Below, piece by piece: positions 9,732 to 56,290 of a stretch of DNA of 64,000 bases (within the stretch, counting starts at the first letter, position 1; each line of letters opens with the position of its first letter). The notes under the pieces are model-generated. The model ran no database searches and had not been told where the DNA came from. It saw only the letters and a program-made list of their open reading frames with translations. Both the position numbers and the translations under genes were made by a program. The DNA is from Halorussus halophilus (GTDB lineage: Archaea; Halobacteriota; Halobacteria; Halobacteriales; Haladaptataceae). The DNA lies in the NCBI RefSeq assembly GCF_008831545.1, contig NZ_CP044523.1, forward strand, positions 992,001 to 1,056,000. Direction: 5' to 3'.

Positions 9732-11747
9732 ATGACACGTACACCAGACGAAAGAGCGAACAGCACAACTCAGACGAGACGACGATTTTTACAGGCAGTC
9801 GCGGCAGGAGGCATCGCCGGGGGCATCGGTCTGACTGGCGCACGGGCACAGGAGACGACCTTAGAGTTCGGCGGCCAGCGCTCGGGATGGGTCGGCCGCG
9901 CGCCAGCGGCAATCGAAGGCCAAACGAATCCGACGCTACAGTTAGAGGCGGGTCGGACGTACACGGTTCGCTGGGAGAACGTGGACGGCCTCCCGCACAA
10001 CTTCGCGTTTCTGGACCCGGACGGGAACAGCATCCCGGTCATCCAGACCGACGACGGGGCGGTCGCCGAGACTGAAATAGTCTCACAACGAGGCGCGACA
10101 CAGGAGTTCCAGTTCGTCGCCGAACCAGCGATTGCGACGTACTTCTGCGTCGTCCACCCGAATTCGATGCGGGGGGGCGTCGAGGTTCGGGGCGGAGGGG
10201 CGACGACGACCGCGGGCGAGGAGACGACCCAACGACCAGAACGCTTCGTGCCACGGGGGCCGACTGTCGGACTCCAACAGGTGGCTGGCGACCCAATTCA
10301 ACAGCCAGTCGGGTTCGCGGTCGCCGACGAGGACCGCGACCGACGGTTCGTCGTGGACCAGAACGGGCAGATATACGTCCACGGACCGGACGGTATCGAA
10401 TCCGAACCGTTCCTCGACGTGCAGGAGAAGTTGGTCTCGCTCCGGAGCGACTTCGACGAGCGCGGACTGCTCGGGTTGGCGTTCCATCCGGAGTTCCAAG
10501 ACAACGGCCGGTTCTTCGTACGTTACAGCGCGCCGTTGCGCCCGGAGGACTTCGTCGGCCCCGACCGAGAGGGGACGCCGAAGGACTTCGACCACACGTT
10601 CGTCCTCTCTGAGTACCAAACGACAGACGATGGGAGTGCTGCTCGACCGGACTCCGAGCGAATCCTCCTGGAGATTCCGGAACCGCAGTTCAACCACAAC
10701 GCGGGCGACCTCGCGTTCGGTCCGGACGGCTACCTCTACGTGGCGGTCGGCGACGGTGGCGGTGCGAACGACTCCGACATGGGCCACGTGCCCGACTGGT
10801 ACGACGACAACGAGGGCGGCAACGGCCAAGACGTGACCGAGAACCTGTTGGGGAGCATTCTGCGCATCGACGTAGACAACGAGGAAGACGGGAGACGGTA
10901 CGCCATCCCAGACGACAACCCGCTCGTCGGCACCGACGCGTTCCCCGAACACTACGCGTGGGGGCTTCGGAACCCGTGGCGTATGTCGTTCAACGACGGC
11001 GAACTGTTCGTCGCGGACGTCGGCCAGAACCTCTTCGAAGAGGTGAACATCGTCGAACGGGGCGGCAACTACGGGTGGAACGTCAAGGAAGCGACGCACT
11101 GTTTCAGCCCCGCGAGTCCGGACGAACCGCCGGAGAACTGTCCGGATTCGACGCCGGACGGCGTGCGCGGTGGAGAGCCACTCATCGACCCCGTCATCGA
11201 GTATCCACACACGTTCCAGAACCAATCGGTCGGCATCTCGGTCACCGGCGGCTACGTCGCGCAGAGCGACACCGTCGGCGAGCTACAGAGTCGGTACGTG
11301 TTCGGTGACTGGAGTCGTTCGTTCAGCGAACCGCGCGGGCGGCTGTTCGTGGCGACTCGTCCAGAAGCGGGGGAAACCGAAACTGCTGAGGAAACGACGA
11401 CTGACACAGCACAAGCGGGAGACGGCGACGGACTCTGGTCGTTCGAAGAACTCGTCGTCGAAAACAGCCCGAACGGCGAAGTCAACCGGTTCGTCCTCGC
11501 CTTCGGTCGGGACCGAAACGGAGACCTGTACGTCTGTACGAGCGAGACACCGAGCGTGAGCGGTTCCGGTAGCGTCTACAAAATCGTCCCTCCGGGAGAA
11601 GGCGACCAGATTTCGCCGCCGGTCCAAGCGACGACTACTGCCGGGGAGACGACGACCGGCGGTGGTGAGACGACGACTTCCGATGGGGAAGCGACGACTG
11701 TCGAAGAAACGACGTCTGCCCCAGAGACGACCGAAGAGAGCGGATAG
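9732..11747 (+). CDS. Cupredoxin fused to PQQ-type sugar dehydrogenase
   Basis: This 671-residue secreted protein has a Tat signal (TRRRFLQAVAAGG), then a cupredoxin domain (about 38-150) with copper ligands in GLPHNF and CVVHPNSM. A short Thr-rich linker precedes a six-bladed beta-propeller (about 175-620) of the glucose/sorbosone dehydrogenase family (GLLGLAFHPEF, FNHNAGDLAFGPDGYLYVAVGDGG, YAWGLRNPWRMSF, GGNYGWN). The tail is a Thr/Glu/Gly-rich spacer. Such propellers oxidise sugars with PQQ; the fused copper domain could take electrons directly from the cofactor. I prefer the ATG at 9732, after a GGGGAG ribosome-binding site, to the one at 9693, because it gives a normal Tat signal. Substrate is unknown. 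Confidence 0.85.
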   Translation: MTRTPDERANSTTQTRRRFLQAVAAGGIAGGIGLTGARAQETTLEFGGQRSGWVGRAPAAIEGQTNPTLQLEAGRTYTVRWENVDGLPHNFAFLDPDGNSIPVIQTDDGAVAETEIVSQRGATQEFQFVAEPAIATYFCVVHPNSMRGGVEVRGGGATTTAGEETTQRPERFVPRGPTVGLQQVAGDPIQQPVGFAVADEDRDRRFVVDQNGQIYVHGPDGIESEPFLDVQEKLVSLRSDFDERGLLGLAFHPEFQDNGRFFVRYSAPLRPEDFVGPDREGTPKDFDHTFVLSEYQTTDDGSAARPDSERILLEIPEPQFNHNAGDLAFGPDGYLYVAVGDGGGANDSDMGHVPDWYDDNEGGNGQDVTENLLGSILRIDVDNEEDGRRYAIPDDNPLVGTDAFPEHYAWGLRNPWRMSFNDGELFVADVGQNLFEEVNIVERGGNYGWNVKEATHCFSPASPDEPPENCPDSTPDGVRGGEPLIDPVIEYPHTFQNQSVGISVTGGYVAQSDTVGELQSRYVFGDWSRSFSEPRGRLFVATRPEAGETETAEETTTDTAQAGDGDGLWSFEELVVENSPNGEVNRFVLAFGRDRNGDLYVCTSETPSVSGSGSVYKIVPPGEGDQISPPVQATTTAGETTTGGGETTTSDGEATTVEETTSAPETTEESG

Positions 11748-11752
11748 AACGG

Positions 11753-13681
11753 TTATTCGAGGAAGGAAACGTCGGTTTCCTTGTTCTCGACTTCAGCGTC
11801 GAGGTGGTCGCGGAAGCGCTCGATTTCGACGTCGTTCTCGTCGCGCTCCTTGCGGTCGCGCACCGAGACGGTCTGGTCTTCCTCCTCGTCGTCGCCGACG
11901 ATGAGCATGTACGGCACGTTGTCGTCGTGGGCCTGCTGAATCTTCTTGCCGACCGTCCACGAGCGGTCCTCGATTTCGACGCGGAAGTCGTCCAGATACC
12001 GGTTCTGCAACTGCTTCGCGTAGCCGATGTTGTCGTCGCTCACAGGCAGGATGCGAACCTGCTCGGGTGCGAGCCACGTCGGGAACTTCCCGTTGAAGTG
12101 CTCTATCATGACGCCCATGAACCGCTCGAACGTGCCGAGCAGCGCGCGGTGGACCATCACCGGGCGGTGTTCCTCGTTGTCCTCGCCCGTGTAGGTCAGG
12201 TCGAGGCGCTCGGGGATGTTGAAGTCCAACTGGACCGTGCCGATGGTCCACTCGCGGCCGATGGCGTCCACGGCGTTGATACCGATTTTCGGACCGTAGA
12301 AGGCGGCTTCGCCAACTTCGACGTCGTATTCCAGATTCTCGGACGCGAGGGCGTCTTTCAGTGCGTCGGTGGCGGTCTCCCAGATATCGTCGCTACCGAC
12401 CGCGTTGTCGCCTTTCGTCTCCAGTTTGTACTTCACTTCGAGACCGAAGTGGCCGTAGATGTCGTCGATAGCGCCGAGTACGTCCACGATTTCGCCCCGA
12501 ATCTGGTCTTCTCGGATGAACGCGTGGCCGTCGTCCTGCGTGAATCCTCGGACTCGGAGCAGTCCCGACAACTCGCCCGACTGTTCGTTGCGGTAGCAGG
12601 TGCCGAACTCCGAGAACCGAACCGGCAAGTCGCGGTAGGAGTGTTGCTTGCGGTCGAAGACGTTGGCGTGGTTCGCGCAGTTCATCGGCTTGAGACCGTA
12701 CTCGGTCTCGTCCTGTTCCCACGCGAACATCTCACCCGCTTCCTTGAAGTTGTCGTAGTGGCCGGTCGGCTTCCACAGTTCGGCCTTGTTGAGTTCGGGC
12801 GTCCACACTTCCTCGTAGCCGAGTTCGTCGTTCTTCGTGCGGACGTACTCTTCGAGTTCGCGGCGAATCGTCATGCCGTTCGGATGGAAGTGGACACAGC
12901 CCGGTGAGTAGTCGGGGATGGAGAACAGGTCCATCTCTTGACCGATTTTGCGGTGGTCGCGCTCTTCGGCTTCCTTGCGTCGCTGGATGAACTCCTCTAG
13001 TTCCTCCTCGCTCTCGAAGGCGGTGCCGTAGACGCGGGTCAGCATCTCGTTCTCTTCGTCGCCGCGCCAGTAGGCACCCGAGATGTTCAGGAGTGCGAAC
13101 CCGCCGATTTCGCCCGTCGATTCGACGTGCGGACCCTTACAGAGGTCTTCGAACTCGCCTTGCTCGTAGAACGAAATCGTCTCCTCGTCTGCGGCCTCTG
13201 TCTCCAGAATCTCGCGCTTGAACTCGTTGTCCTCGTAGACCTCGAACGCCTCGTCGCGAGACCGCTCGAACCGTTCGATGTCGTAGTCCTCCGCGATGAT
13301 GTCGTAGGCTTCTTCTTCGATTTCTTCGAGGTCTTCTTCGTCCAAATCGACACCGTAGATGTCGTAGTAGAAGCCGTCGTCCGTCCACGGGCCGATGGTT
13401 AACTTCGCGTCGGGGTAGAGTCGCTGGAGGGCTTGTGCGAAGACGTGAGCGCCGGAGTGGCGAAGTACGTCGAGGTACTCCTCGCTCTGGTCTGTGACGA
13501 TTTCGATGCGTACGTCCTCGTGGAGTTCAGTCGCCTTGTCTACGAGGTCGCCGTTCACGACACCTGCGACGGTGTCTCGCCCGAGTCCGGGCCCGATTTC
13601 GTACGCGACGTCCTCGACAGACGAGCCCTCCGACAGCTCCAACTCGGAGCCGTCTGGGAGGGTGACGGTGATCTGGCTCAT
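11753..13681 (-). CDS. thrS: Threonyl-tRNA synthetase
   Basis: This 642-residue class II synthetase charges tRNA-Thr. The order is TGS domain (1-60), second additional domain with editing-site histidines (HSGAH and CKGPH), catalytic core (about 240-530; [51 protein letters not shown] in parts, zinc ligands Cys/His/His), and the anticodon-binding domain (about 540-640). The TGS plus HxxxH editing arrangement is the bacterial/eukaryotic type, not the archaeal type whose N-terminal domain resembles D-aminoacyl-tRNA deacylase. This is consistent with ancient transfer into haloarchaea. It converges on the sugar dehydrogenase gene with 5 nt between the stops. Confidence 0.96.
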
Positions 13682-23363: not shown

Positions 23364-23570
23364 ACTTCTTCGAAATCCCCGACCCGCTCGCGGTCGCTGA
23401 CACGGGATATTCGCGGCTCTCCACACAGTCCGCCGCGAATACTGGCCCGCCGCGAATACTGGCCCGCGCAGACGACCATGGCAAGCGCGAGCGCGCCGCC
23501 CCTTTCAGTCCCACCCTATTGGCTACTGTCACCGAGCTTTTCGGGTGGTTTGGTTCATCAAGCGCATCTG
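23364..23570 (+). repeat. R-type hairpin element, copy 1 (solo)
   Basis: It begins ACTTCTTCGAAATCCCCG and later carries the hallmark CCCCTTTCAGTCCCACCC (from about 23499), followed by about 50 nt still alignable to other R copies. An outer stem is formed by CGCTCGCG (23385-23392) and CGCGAGCG (23486-23493). Inside lies a 17-bp direct repeat CCGCGAATACTGGCCCG in two adjacent copies. No L block is nearby. The element fills most of the 455-nt gap before purF. Confidence 0.75.
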
Positions 23571-31450: not shown

Positions 31451-31637
31451 GGCGCGCGCTGGCGAAACCCCGAAGGGTGTTTCGCCGAAGTCGCGTGAGG
31501 GATGAGCATCACAGACTCGGAAAGCGCGCTACGGCGCGCTTTCCGTAGCGAGAAGCGCAGTCGGTTGGGGAGGACGTGGCCGTCGCGGTGCGGAGCGGTG
31601 CTGTGCGGTTTCTCCTTGGTTTCGGGAGTAGCTAGCG
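31451..31637 (+). repeat. L-type hairpin element, copy 1
   Basis: It starts GGCGCGCGCTGGCG, then hairpin 1 (GCGAAAC..GTTTCGC, 31462-31485), GTGAGGGATGAGCA, and hairpin 2, a perfect 12-bp stem (31518-31529 with 31534-31545, loop TACG). The conserved core begins GCAGTCGGTTGGGGAGG at 31557 and ends TCGGGAGTAGCTAGC at 31636. It occupies half of the gap before the Gfo/Idh/MocA gene; an R copy follows that gene in the same orientation. Confidence 0.8.
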
Positions 31638-31785
31638 TTGCTGTGCCAACGACTCTTGAGCAGTCCCCAGTACGAGTTACCCTCTCTGATTGCTCTCTTC
31701 TAGTTCAGGTTCCCGTTCAGCGTATCCCTCGCAAGCAGTACCGCGTTCCTGAAACACTAAGCCGCTCCATAAAGAAAATCCACTT

Positions 31786-32907
31786 ATGACACTCAAAGTC
31801 GGCGTCCTCGGCTACCGATTCATGGGCAAGGCACACGCGAACGCGCTCGCGCGCCTGCCGATGTTCTTCCCGGAGGCACCCGAAGTCGAACGCCACACGC
31901 TCGTCGGCCGAGACGAGGAGGCCCTCGAAGACGCCGCCGAACGACTCGGATTCTCTCACACCAGCACCGACTGGGAAGCCACCATCGAGGAGGTAGACGT
32001 GTTCTACAACCTCGGGCCGAACCACGTCCACGCCGAACCCTCCATCGCGGCACTGGAAGCGGGCGTTCCTGTCCTCTCCGAAAAACCCCTTTCCAACGAC
32101 CTCGAAAGCGCAGAGCGAATGGCCGCGGCCGCCGAATCTGCGGGCGTCCCGACTGCCACGGCGTTCAACTACCGGTTCGTTCCGGCGATTCAGTACGCGA
32201 AGAACCTCATCGACGCGGGCGAACTCGGCGATATTCACCACTTTCGAGGCCAGTACCTCCAAGACTGGCTGGTGGACCCCGAGGCTCCATGGTCGTGGCG
32301 CAACGACGAGGAGATGGCCGGGAGCGGCGCGCTCGGGGACCTCGGCGCGCACACCATCGACCTCGCGCGCTTCCTCGTCGGCGAAGTAGAGCGCGTCTCT
32401 GGCCACCTACAGACCTTCGTAGACGAGCGCCCGGTAGAAGGGAGCGAGGACGAGAGCGGCGAGACTGAAACCCGACCGGTCACCGTGGACGACGCCTACT
32501 CCGCGCAGGCAGAACTGGCGGGCGGCGTGATGGGCACCTTCGAAGCCTCGCGGTTCGCCAACGGACACAAGAACGACCACACTATCGAGATTCACGGCTC
32601 CGAGGGCAGTCTGAAGTTCTCGCTCGAACGACTGAACGAACTCGAAGTCCTGCGCGACGACAACCGCGGCTACGAGACGATTCTGGTCACCGACGAGAGC
32701 GACCCTTACATCGGCCACTGGTGGCCGCCGGGCCACGTCGTCGGGTGGGAACACACCTTCGTCCACGAGAACTTCGAGTTCTTGAGTGCAGTTGAATCGG
32801 GAGACACTGCGTATCAGCCGGACTTCGCGGACGGCCTCGAAGTTCAGCGCGTCCTTGACGCCATCGAGGAGAGCGACGAGCGTGGTGAATGGGTAGATGT
32901 GGAATAA
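31786..32907 (+). CDS. Gfo/Idh/MocA-family oxidoreductase
   Basis: This 373-residue NAD(P)-dependent sugar or inositol dehydrogenase-like enzyme has an N-terminal Rossmann fold with VGVLGYRFMGKAHANAL (glycine motif G-x-G-x-x-G modified to GYRFMG). The family motif EKP appears in LSEKPLSND (about residue 100). A C-terminal dimer domain contains GALGDLGAHTIDLARFLVG, which supplies the catalytic histidine region. Substrate is unknown. The gene is bracketed by an L element upstream and an R element downstream, both in its own orientation. Confidence 0.9.
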   Translation: MTLKVGVLGYRFMGKAHANALARLPMFFPEAPEVERHTLVGRDEEALEDAAERLGFSHTSTDWEATIEEVDVFYNLGPNHVHAEPSIAALEAGVPVLSEKPLSNDLESAERMAAAAESAGVPTATAFNYRFVPAIQYAKNLIDAGELGDIHHFRGQYLQDWLVDPEAPWSWRNDEEMAGSGALGDLGAHTIDLARFLVGEVERVSGHLQTFVDERPVEGSEDESGETETRPVTVDDAYSAQAELAGGVMGTFEASRFANGHKNDHTIEIHGSEGSLKFSLERLNELEVLRDDNRGYETILVTDESDPYIGHWWPPGHVVGWEHTFVHENFEFLSAVESGDTAYQPDFADGLEVQRVLDAIEESDERGEWVDVE

Positions 32908-32963
32908 GAGTAGGATTGAAGACCTCTACTGACTCATTTCGGACCGACAGCGTTACCTCTGCT

Positions 32964-33090
32964 GCTTCTTCGAAAGCCCCGGCGCGCTCGCGGTCGCTCT
33001 GTTGACGCGAGCGCGCCGCCCCTTTCATTCCCACCCTGTAGAATGGTTAGTCGGGCGGTTTCGGTGGTAGGTCTCGCTGGCCGATACTGC
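32964..33090 (+). repeat. R-type hairpin element, copy 2
   Basis: It starts CTTCTTCGAAAGCCCCG. GGCGCGCTCGCG (32981-32992) pairs perfectly with CGCGAGCGCGCC (33006-33017) over a 13-nt loop, and the hallmark CCCCTTTCATTCCCACCC follows. Further similarity to the other copies runs to about 33090. It is the most compact R copy, with no internal hairpins, and sits 56 nt after the oxidoreductase gene. Confidence 0.8.
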
Positions 33091-51471: not shown

Positions 51472-51611
51472 GGCGCGCGCTGGCGTGACCTCGTGTCACG
51501 CCATCTCCGTGCGAGGGATGAGCGAATGGACGTGAGCGAATCGGCTGGGGAGGGTGTGGCTCTCGCGGTGCTGTGCGGGCGGTCTTCTAGGTATCGGGTG
51601 TAGCTAGCTTC
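51472..51611 (+). repeat. L-type hairpin element, copy 2
   Basis: It starts GGCGCGCGCTGGCG. Hairpin 1 is GGCGTGAC-CCTCGT-like loop-GTCACGCC (51482-51502), a stem unrelated in sequence to the hairpin in copy 1. GTGCGAGGGATGAGCGA follows, then the core TCGGCTGGGGAGGGTGTGGC from 51541, ending GTAGCTAGCTTC at 51612. Hairpin 2 is reduced to an imperfect fold here. An R copy follows 44 nt later in the same orientation. Confidence 0.8.
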
Positions 51612-51655
51612 GACTCTACCGACTTCGATGGCAAAAACCATGACACAGTAGTAAC

Positions 51656-51880
51656 CTCCTAGAAAGCCCCCGTGCGCTAACTCCCGCGACTTGCTGTCGT
51701 TCGAAAGACCCGACGGGTCTTTCGTGATGACGAGAGAGCGATGCTCTCTCGAACCACGCTCCTCACTGCGTTACGGTGCTTACTTCGTCGGGGTTCGTTT
51801 AGCGCACGGCCCCTTTCAGTCCCACCCTGTGGAATGGGTCGCCGGGCGTTTCCGATGGTTCGATTTACTGAGCGCGTTCT
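51656..51880 (+). repeat. R-type hairpin element, copy 3
   Basis: It starts ACCTCCTAGAAAGCCCCCG. The outer stem CCGTGCGCTAA (51670-51680) pairs with TTAGCGCACGG (51799-51809). Inside are two perfect hairpins, CGAAAGACCCG-A-CGGGTCTTTCG (51702-51724) and CGAGAGAGC-GAT-GCTCTCTCG (51731-51751). The hallmark CCCCTTTCAGTCCCACCC follows from about 51810. Together with the L copy it fills the 473-nt gap between the DUF5822 and HAD genes. Confidence 0.85.
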
Positions 51881-51896
51881 GTTCTATGTTTCCCCG

Positions 51897-55760: not shown

Positions 55761-56048
55761 AGTGGTCGGAAAGGGGTCTGCTTTGGCCTGCCTACTCAAC
55801 CAACAGGGTGGGACTACCGAAAGACGCGCCGAGCGCGTCTTTCGACTTCCCACTCACTTCGCTCGCGAGACTGAAAGGGGCCGGACGCTCGCGTTCACGT
55901 GGTTGCTTCTACGGGCTACTATGTTGGTCGTGCTGTGGGGAGAGGCCAAAATATCCCGCAGAACGACCGCGACCACCGGGAGAGCAAAGCTCTCCCGAGA
56001 TAACGGCGCTTCGCGCCGTGAACGGACGGGGTCTTTCGAGGAAGAAGT
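55761..56048 (-). repeat. R-type hairpin element, copy 4 (with hairpin inserted in the conserved block)
   Basis: On the minus strand it starts CTTCTTCCTCGAAAGACCCC. The outer stem includes CGTTCACG/CGTGAACG (56017-56024 with 55892-55899). Internal hairpins are ACGGCGC-TTC-GCGCCGT (56003-56019) and CGGGAGAGC-AAA-GCTCTCCCG (55977-55997). The hallmark block is split: CCCCTTTCAGTC, then about 60 nt holding a 12-bp hairpin CGAAAGACGCGC-CGA-GCGCGTCTTTCG (55818-55844), then TCCCACCCTG. It is the largest R copy. Confidence 0.8.
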
Positions 56049-56055
56049 GATGTTG

Positions 56056-56100
56056 AATTGGCTGAATCGGCTGAATTGGCTGAGTTGGCTTAGTTGGCAA
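56056..56100. repeat. 9-bp tandem repeat, five units
   Basis: Five head-to-tail 9-mers (AATTGGCTG, AATCGGCTG, AATTGGCTG, AGTTGGCTT, AGTTGGCAA) occupy most of the 62-nt spacer between the L and R blocks at this locus. Confidence 0.8.
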
Positions 56101-56110
56101 AATCAGCAGT

Positions 56111-56290
56111 GAAACTAGCTACTCCCGAAACCGAGGAGAGACCGCACCGCAACCGCAGCAGCCACACCCTCCCCAACCGACTGCGGTCCTCAGGTTCGGA
56201 CGACGCGACGAGTCGCGTCGTCCGCGTTGTGGTCCTCGTCCCTCGCGCGAAGTTAGCGCGACACGCTCTGCGGTCGCGCCAGCGCGCGCC
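56111..56290 (-). repeat. L-type hairpin element, copy 3
   Basis: On the minus strand it starts GGCGCGCGCTGGCG (56290-56277). Hairpin 1 is GCGCGAC/GTCGCGC (56256-56262 with 56273-56279). GCGCGAGGGACGAGGA follows, then hairpin 2, a 28-nt perfect palindrome (56197-56224). The core GCAGTCGGTTGGGGAGGG ends TCGGGAGTAGCTAG. Neither stem sequence matches those in copies 1 and 2. The L-then-R order is the same as at the other loci, but reversed on the chromosome. Confidence 0.85.

What the first reader, a model, noticed from the sequence alone, without database searches (positions are those of the whole stretch)
31451..33090. Paired L and R non-coding blocks recur in fixed order and orientation at three loci
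Seen directly: an L block (start GGCGCGCGCTGGCG, core AGTCGGTTGGGGAGG, end GTAGCTAGC) is followed by an R block (start CTTCTTCGAAAGCCCCG, hallmark CCCCTTTCAGTCCCACCC) at 31451-33090, 51472-51880 and, on the minus strand, 56290-55761. The L-R spacing is about 1326, 44 and 62 nt. Order and relative orientation are the same each time, so L and R behave as the two ends of one unit. There is no ORF in the blocks. Known analogues include non-autonomous derivatives of IS200/IS605 elements, whose ends are hairpins recognised as single strands, and palindrome-associated elements reported in Haloquadratum. Whether this pair is already described I cannot tell.
Basis: partly seen in the sequence, partly recalled or inferred. 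Interest (0 to 1): 0.85.

Follow-up and report, generated by a model that had tools for sequence, protein, structure and literature searches.

The report
Mosaic palindromic repeats in haloarchaeal intergenic DNA
The two repeated non-coding blocks are real, but they are two separate families of hairpin-forming repeats spread through the spaces between genes in salt-loving archaea; they resemble the REP/BIME repeats of bacteria, they join in several arrangements, and no mobilising enzyme is known.

Summary
L and R are real and far above chance. The host genome (Halorussus, 4.45 Mb) holds about 58 R cores and at least 45-56 L cores, all intergenic. Two of the three window pairs are such composites. 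The third (31451-33090) is not a unit: a resident oxidoreductase gene, present in every congener, lies between a lineage-specific L and an R left from another composite.
Across 392 genomes of the order L and R copy numbers are uncorrelated. Some genomes carry 125 L with 7 R, others 70 R with no L. Outside Halorussus the usual arrangement is convergent doublets: R> <R (20-29 nt apart), L> <L and L> <R.
Both are structured, with strong compensatory covariation. Helices keep shape while sequence and apical hairpins are exchanged, even at orthologous sites. Empty and occupied orthologous sites and uneven copy number indicate past mobility; one L site is shared by six species.
An IS200/IS605 origin is not supported: eight element-rich genomes lack TnpA, and no intact L or R core lies near the host's 13 TnpB genes. 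Best reading: two families of REPIN/BIME-like non-autonomous palindromic elements, mobiliser unknown.

The parts
31451..31636 (+). L element, host-lineage-specific, about 150 nt upstream of a resident oxidoreductase (MviM/Gfo-Idh-like) gene
   Evidence: CM E 1.4e-10; absent at this interval in six congeners
31786..32907 (+). Resident oxidoreductase gene between L and R; NOT cargo
   Evidence: found in all 17 congeners with or without L/R
32972..33035 (+). R element (short hairpin form), remnant of an older L>R> composite at this site
   Evidence: G074 carries L>R>, G041 L only, G171 R only here
51472..51608 (+). L element of a complete L>R> composite
   Evidence: CM E 2.2e-21
51662..51826 (+). 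R element: GAAAGCCCCCG - type B hairpin core - CGGCCCCTTTCAGTCCCACC
   Evidence: same site holds type A R in G108/G130/G171, a truncated R in G058, nothing in seven other congeners
51827..51890 (+). Degenerate ~26-nt repeats that follow R (GTTCACCGGGCGTTTTCGGTGGT-like)
56114..56290 (-). L element of the second L>R> composite
   Evidence: CM E 2.6e-9
55807..56037 (-). R element of the second composite; its CTTTCAGTCCCACC core is split by a hairpin insert
   Evidence: site without L/R in G114 and G176, degenerate L tail and repeats in G097
55812..55868 (-). Hairpin cassette inserted in the R core (AGTC repeated on both sides)
   Evidence: read directly
23372..23515 (+). Solo R element (type A core, GAAATCCCC start) without an intact L

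Best explanation
L and R are two unrelated families of interspersed, hairpin-forming, non-autonomous DNA elements of Halobacteriales that work like bacterial REP/REPIN/BIME repeats. Each is a half-element with short invariant single-stranded motifs (L: GAGGGAYGAG and TCGGYTGGGGAGG; R: GAAAGCCCC and GGCCCCTTTCAGTCCCACC) held apart by stems whose sequence is free but whose pairing is kept. Shown: high copy number, intergenic location, covariation, convergent doublets with tight spacing, independent copy numbers, empty and occupied orthologous sites, core swaps, and a Halorussus-specific tandem L>R> composite with ~55-nt spacing. Inferred: a trans-acting recombinase recognises the folded single strand and copies single, doublet or composite elements to new intergenic sites; copies are then inherited, gain hairpin cassettes and lose hairpins by precise deletion (GAAAG|TCCCACC).
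For: Copy numbers with near-zero reversed-pattern controls: R exact in 185/392 genomes, L core in 164/392. 58 R and 48 L matches counted in the host genome; none of those evaluated lies inside a called gene. Independence: rho 0.26, p 0.18 in the complete family sample and -0.07 in a pooled but selected set. Doublets: R> <R 26 with 22 at 20-29 nt, L> <R 18 at 5-56 nt, L> <L 11 in one genome. Covariation: L 96.6% paired cells, score 0.374 vs 0.213 shuffled and at most 0.131 slid; R type B 97.0%, 0.436 vs 0.095 shuffled and at most 0.051 slid. Site history. Composite spacing. Precise hairpin-less form GAAAGTCCCACC: 13 of the 18 matches are in R-rich congeners (5 in the host genome), 1 each in five others. 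Copies on Halorussus and other haloarchaeal plasmids.
Against: No mobilising enzyme was identified. Exact element boundaries and target sites were not resolved, because the closest relatives differ by about 15-20% in DNA. One L site is shared by six species and one R site by five, so many copies are old. Fixed G-U pairs in L helix 1 could mean that L acts as RNA.
Confidence: 0.55

Rival explanations
1. L (and perhaps R) is a family of structured non-coding RNAs or RNA leaders transcribed from many intergenic loci; covariation reflects selection on the RNA.
For: L helix 1 varies only by G-C to G-U exchange with no A.C mismatch (GU:14/GC:9, GC:16/GU:7); interior G.T exceed A.C in L hairpin P2 of G302, 32 vs 4; invariant unpaired motifs; 21 of 45 L lie codirectionally between two genes of their own strand; one L site conserved in six species.
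Against: Up to 125 copies in one genome and zero in congeners fit a repeat better than a gene family; strand asymmetry is not consistent between helices or between R sets; R stems change almost only by full Watson-Crick exchange (66 double changes, 1 one-sided), as expected of a DNA palindrome; no Rfam match.
Confidence: 0.2
2. L and R are the two ends of non-autonomous IS200/IS605 elements (PATE-like), moved by TnpA.
For: Near-terminal palindromes and no shared terminal inverted repeat, as in Haloquadratum PATEs (PMC3119063); precise hairpin-less junctions GAAAG|TCCCACC; the type B core of R shares 38 nt with the 3' end of a TnpB-type gene in Salinirubellus.
Against: G041, G108, G104, G008, G391, G248, G376 and G366 carry 20-96 L+R copies but no Y1_Tnp gene, while element-poor genomes G180, G155 and G243 have 4-5; 13 TnpB loci of the host genome carry no intact L/R core; L and R occur without each other.
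Confidence: 0.1
3. L and R are host functional sites (nucleoid, replication or transcription insulation), kept by selection on their DNA structure.
For: Strict intergenic placement; gene starts face the 5' side of R in 43 of 58 (p 0.0003); conserved structure at orthologous sites.
Against: Absent or nearly so in sister species that live without them (0 L and 0 R cores in G017 and G136); orientation classes of element-bearing intergenic regions match those without elements.
Confidence: 0.1

Closest known systems
REP / BIME / REPIN repeats of bacteria (Bertels and Rainey 2011, PMC3116915; GTAG/CGTC REPs PMC3733652; RAYT PMC2817692)
   Same: High-copy extragenic palindromes, inverted doublets with short fixed spacing, mosaics of different half-units, lineage-specific amplification.
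   Different: L and R are ~110-190 nt rather than 20-40 nt, multi-helix, accept nested hairpin cassettes, are archaeal, show no GTAG/CGTC tag common to all copies and have no linked RAYT (Y1_Tnp) gene in many carriers.
PATEs of Haloquadratum walsbyi (PMC3119063)
   Same: Non-coding haloarchaeal elements with near-terminal palindromes, no TIR, no target duplication, many diverged copies, precise core deletions.
   Different: PATEs share ends with IS605-type transposons; L/R show no association with tnpA or tnpB and their copy number does not follow tnpA.
SMR-A small mobile repeats (PMC3119063)
   Same: Hairpin units inserted inside palindromes of other repeats, as seen for the cassettes inside L and R.
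   Different: SMR-A are ~110 bp with ITRs; the cassettes here are ~52-57 nt, one or two hairpins, at fixed positions (GAGG^GATGAG of L). I did not compare sequences with SMR-A.
MITEs
   Same: Short, non-coding, non-autonomous, patchy.
   Different: No TIR/TSD in Halorussus L or R; one R-bearing type in MAG QS_9_67_17 does have GTGTTCAG...CTGAACAC terminal repeats, without obvious TSD.

Membership tests
IS200/IS605 non-autonomous derivatives (PATE) | Terminal or near-terminal hairpins, no TIR | tested here: met
   no TIR seen in Halorussus copies
IS200/IS605 non-autonomous derivatives (PATE) | TnpA (Y1 HUH) available in carrier genomes, copy number following it | tested here: not met
   eight element-rich genomes lack PF01797
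IS200/IS605 non-autonomous derivatives (PATE) | Ends shared with tnpA/tnpB-coding elements | tested here: not met
   no intact L/R core at 13 TnpB loci (one locus has a weak L-tail match about 1.1 kb from the TnpB domain); only a 38-nt core similarity to a Salinirubellus TnpB 3' end
IS200/IS605 non-autonomous derivatives (PATE) | Fixed 4-5 nt target at one end, no TSD | tested here: inconclusive
   relatives too diverged to place exact ends
REPIN / BIME | High-copy extragenic palindromic unit | tested here: met
REPIN / BIME | Inverted doublets with short fixed spacing and mosaic combinations | tested here: met
   tandem composite
REPIN / BIME | GTAG/CGTC tag at the palindrome foot | tested here: not met
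   alignments A1-A3: Halorussus L tails contain GTAG but G302 L and R do not share it
REPIN / BIME | Linked RAYT transposase | tested here: not met
   in the host genome Y1_Tnp genes lie only on contig C3, L/R on C1 and C2
MITE | Terminal inverted repeats and target-site duplication | tested here: not met
   not in Halorussus copies; TIR-like ends only in the QS_9_67_17 type
Known structured RNA (Rfam) | Match to a curated covariance model | tested here: not met
   no match
Structured RNA (any) | Transcription of the element strand | not testable with these tools
   no RNA-seq available

The most novel reading that the evidence does not exclude
L and R are founding members of an archaeal class of modular palindromic mobile elements, recognised by fold rather than sequence and moved by an enzyme unrelated to TnpA/RAYT, in which hairpin cores are exchanged as cassettes at fixed junctions.
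Probability: 0.25. Interest if true: 0.8.

Novelty: new variant of a known kind. Interest (0 to 1): 0.58.

Why it matters
Two repeat families found here in 164 and 185 of 392 haloarchaeal genomes, at up to 125 and 70 core copies per genome, are absent from Rfam and were not found by motif search in 5.39 million open-access papers. They give archaea a counterpart of REP/BIME repeats, offer a natural system for structure-guided recognition (stems change freely, folds do not), and make the question of what mobilises such elements testable, since eight element-rich genomes have no Y1_Tnp gene.

Tried and rejected
L-cargo-R transposon at 31451-33090: rejected, the gene is resident in all congeners. 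IS200/IS605 ends: TnpA and TnpB tests failed. Rfam families: none. Transcription terminators: no T-run seen by eye, and convergent intergenic regions are not enriched. Deciding RNA versus DNA from MFE strand asymmetry and G.T versus A.C counts: inconclusive, because composition and fixed wobble pairs confound both. Phage origin: no match in 50,697 phage records. Finding the transposase through the QS_9_67_17 terminal repeats: no useful plasmid match. Literature search by sequence motif: nothing relevant.

Full report
CHECK. The window is G000:C1:992001-1056000 of a 4.45 Mb haloarchaeal genome. Its genus is Halorussus: a congener contig equals that of H. salinisoli in length. A covariance model of L, built from 19 copies of another family's genome (G302) plus four haladaptataceal and Haloarcula copies, one of them from this window, finds exactly the three L copies in the window (the 51472 copy was in the training set, the other two were not).

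CENSUS. Pattern searches of the whole genome gave 71 R-like (7 reversed-control) and 53 L-like (1 control) places. In 377 kb of fetched stretches 58 R cores and 48 L-core matches (about 45 genuine) were counted, and none of those evaluated lies inside a called ORF (simple codon-usage gene caller). The covariance model gives 56 L in this genome, limited by the number of candidates scored.

COMPOSITE. 22 of 58 R are preceded by an L tail; the distance from tail to GAAAG is 44-56 nt in 19 and exactly 55 in nine. About 1.7 such cases would be expected from the density of the loose tail motif. So the tandem L>R> unit is real in this genome. It also occurs in congener G074, but among 160 R cores of other records only two follow a true L tail (L327, L341).

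INDEPENDENCE. R (exact) occurs in 185 and L (up to 1 mismatch) in 164 of 392 genomes of the order. Examples: 125 L/7 R (G302), 69/1 (G108), 29/0 (G031), 0/70 (G324), 1/58 (G265), 0/45 (G187). Counts are uncorrelated in the complete family sample (rho 0.26, p 0.18) and in a pooled but selected set (rho -0.07). Outside Halorussus the pairs are convergent: R> <R 26 times (22 at 20-29 nt), L> <R 18 times (5-56 nt), L> <L 11 times in G302 stretches, L>R> core pairs none. Some R doublets have symmetric outer arms and one hairpin-less half (GGTGGGACTTTCGAGG). The G302 loci were oriented on L hits and overlap in part, so its doublet count is approximate.

THE THREE WINDOW LOCI. (a) 51472-51890: complete L>R>. 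At the orthologous convergent gene junction, G108, G130 and G171 carry R with a different (type A) core, G058 a truncated R, and seven congeners have 32-72 nt with no element. (b) 55807-56290: complete L>R> with an insert splitting the R core; G114 and G176 have neither, G097 keeps a degenerate L tail and repeats. (c) 31451-33090: the oxidoreductase gene is found in all 17 congeners searched; the L upstream is absent at the short interval of six congeners; the downstream site has R here, L>R> in G074, L only in G041, R only in G171 and 22-60 nt without elements in G017, G108, G181 and G066. The third pair is therefore a coincidence of two histories.

STRUCTURE. L: 96.6% of cells paired, covariation 0.374 against 0.213 shuffled and at most 0.131 when slid; 16 of 41 pairs compensated in the Halorussus-only alignment. 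R type B (27 sequences): 97.0% paired, covariation 0.436 against 0.095 shuffled and at most 0.051 slid; 66 double changes but one single-sided change. L helix 1 varies only through G-U. Strand-asymmetry tests disagree between helices and data sets, so RNA versus single-stranded DNA is left open.

MOBILITY AND INHERITANCE. In a 20-kb syntenic block of six species of one genus, two L sites are occupied only in G302, where other DNA stands in the other five, and one L is shared by all six at the same place and strand, with different stem sequences. In one species (G254) a ~52-nt two-hairpin cassette lies in GAGG^GATGAG, the same position as cassettes in Halorussus L copies. Hairpin-less R junctions GAAAGTCCCACC occur 13 times in R-rich congeners (5 in the host genome) and once each in five other genomes, with few control hits. 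Copies are also on plasmids.

MOBILISER. Y1_Tnp (PF01797) is missing in G041, G108, G104, G008, G391, G248, G376 and G366, which hold 20-96 element cores by the two patterns, and is present in 4-5 copies in element-poor G180, G155 and G243. No intact L or R core lies at the 13 TnpB loci of the host genome; one locus has a weak L-tail match about 1.1 kb from the TnpB domain. So the IS200/IS605 and RAYT routes are not supported as the present mobiliser, although past activity with later loss cannot be excluded.

PLACE AMONG KNOWN THINGS. The architecture works like REP/BIME/REPIN repeats, but size, nested cassettes, lack of a common tag and lack of RAYT argue against membership. PATEs and SMR-A of Haloquadratum (PMC3119063) are the nearest haloarchaeal descriptions. 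No Rfam family matches, and motif searches of 5.39 million open-access papers found nothing relevant; subscription papers were not searchable.

CONCLUSION. Shown: two independent high-copy structured repeat families, a Halorussus-specific tandem composite, convergent doublets elsewhere, variable occupancy and core exchange. Inferred: trans-mobilisation by an unidentified enzyme that recognises the folded strand.

Noticed in passing
L232, L238, L239, L242, L318 (MAGs QS_9_67_17 and QH_7_66_36): R lies in the middle of ~270-nt elements with terminal inverted repeats GTGTTCAG...CTGAACAC and no obvious target duplication; parent IS not found.
   Followed up: partly
window 51662-51826; locus L130:2501-2538: 38 nt of the type B R core match the 3' end of a TnpB-like gene on a Salinirubellus plasmid, perhaps a shared hairpin cassette.
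   Followed up: partly
L402:5574-6020 and 11457-12069 (G302): At two sites G302 has L doublets where five congeners have other DNA (coding at the second), resembling deletion-coupled insertion.
   Followed up: no
L444 (G254:C1:2717500-2718800): A ~52-nt two-hairpin cassette inserted in GAGG^GATGAG of an orthologous L; five sister species lack it.
   Followed up: partly
window 51827-51890; G000:C1:237658 onward; G074 downstream of the oxidoreductase gene: R is followed by ~26-nt repeats, in places near-perfect tandem arrays (TCTGGTCAGTCAGCTGTTTCCGATGG).
   Followed up: no
G000:C1:3003661, 3540147, 2566431; L133: Triplets R> L> <R in which L is cut at its GCGGTG run by an inverted R; Haloarcula rara plasmid CP119786 has the L> <R part.
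   Followed up: partly
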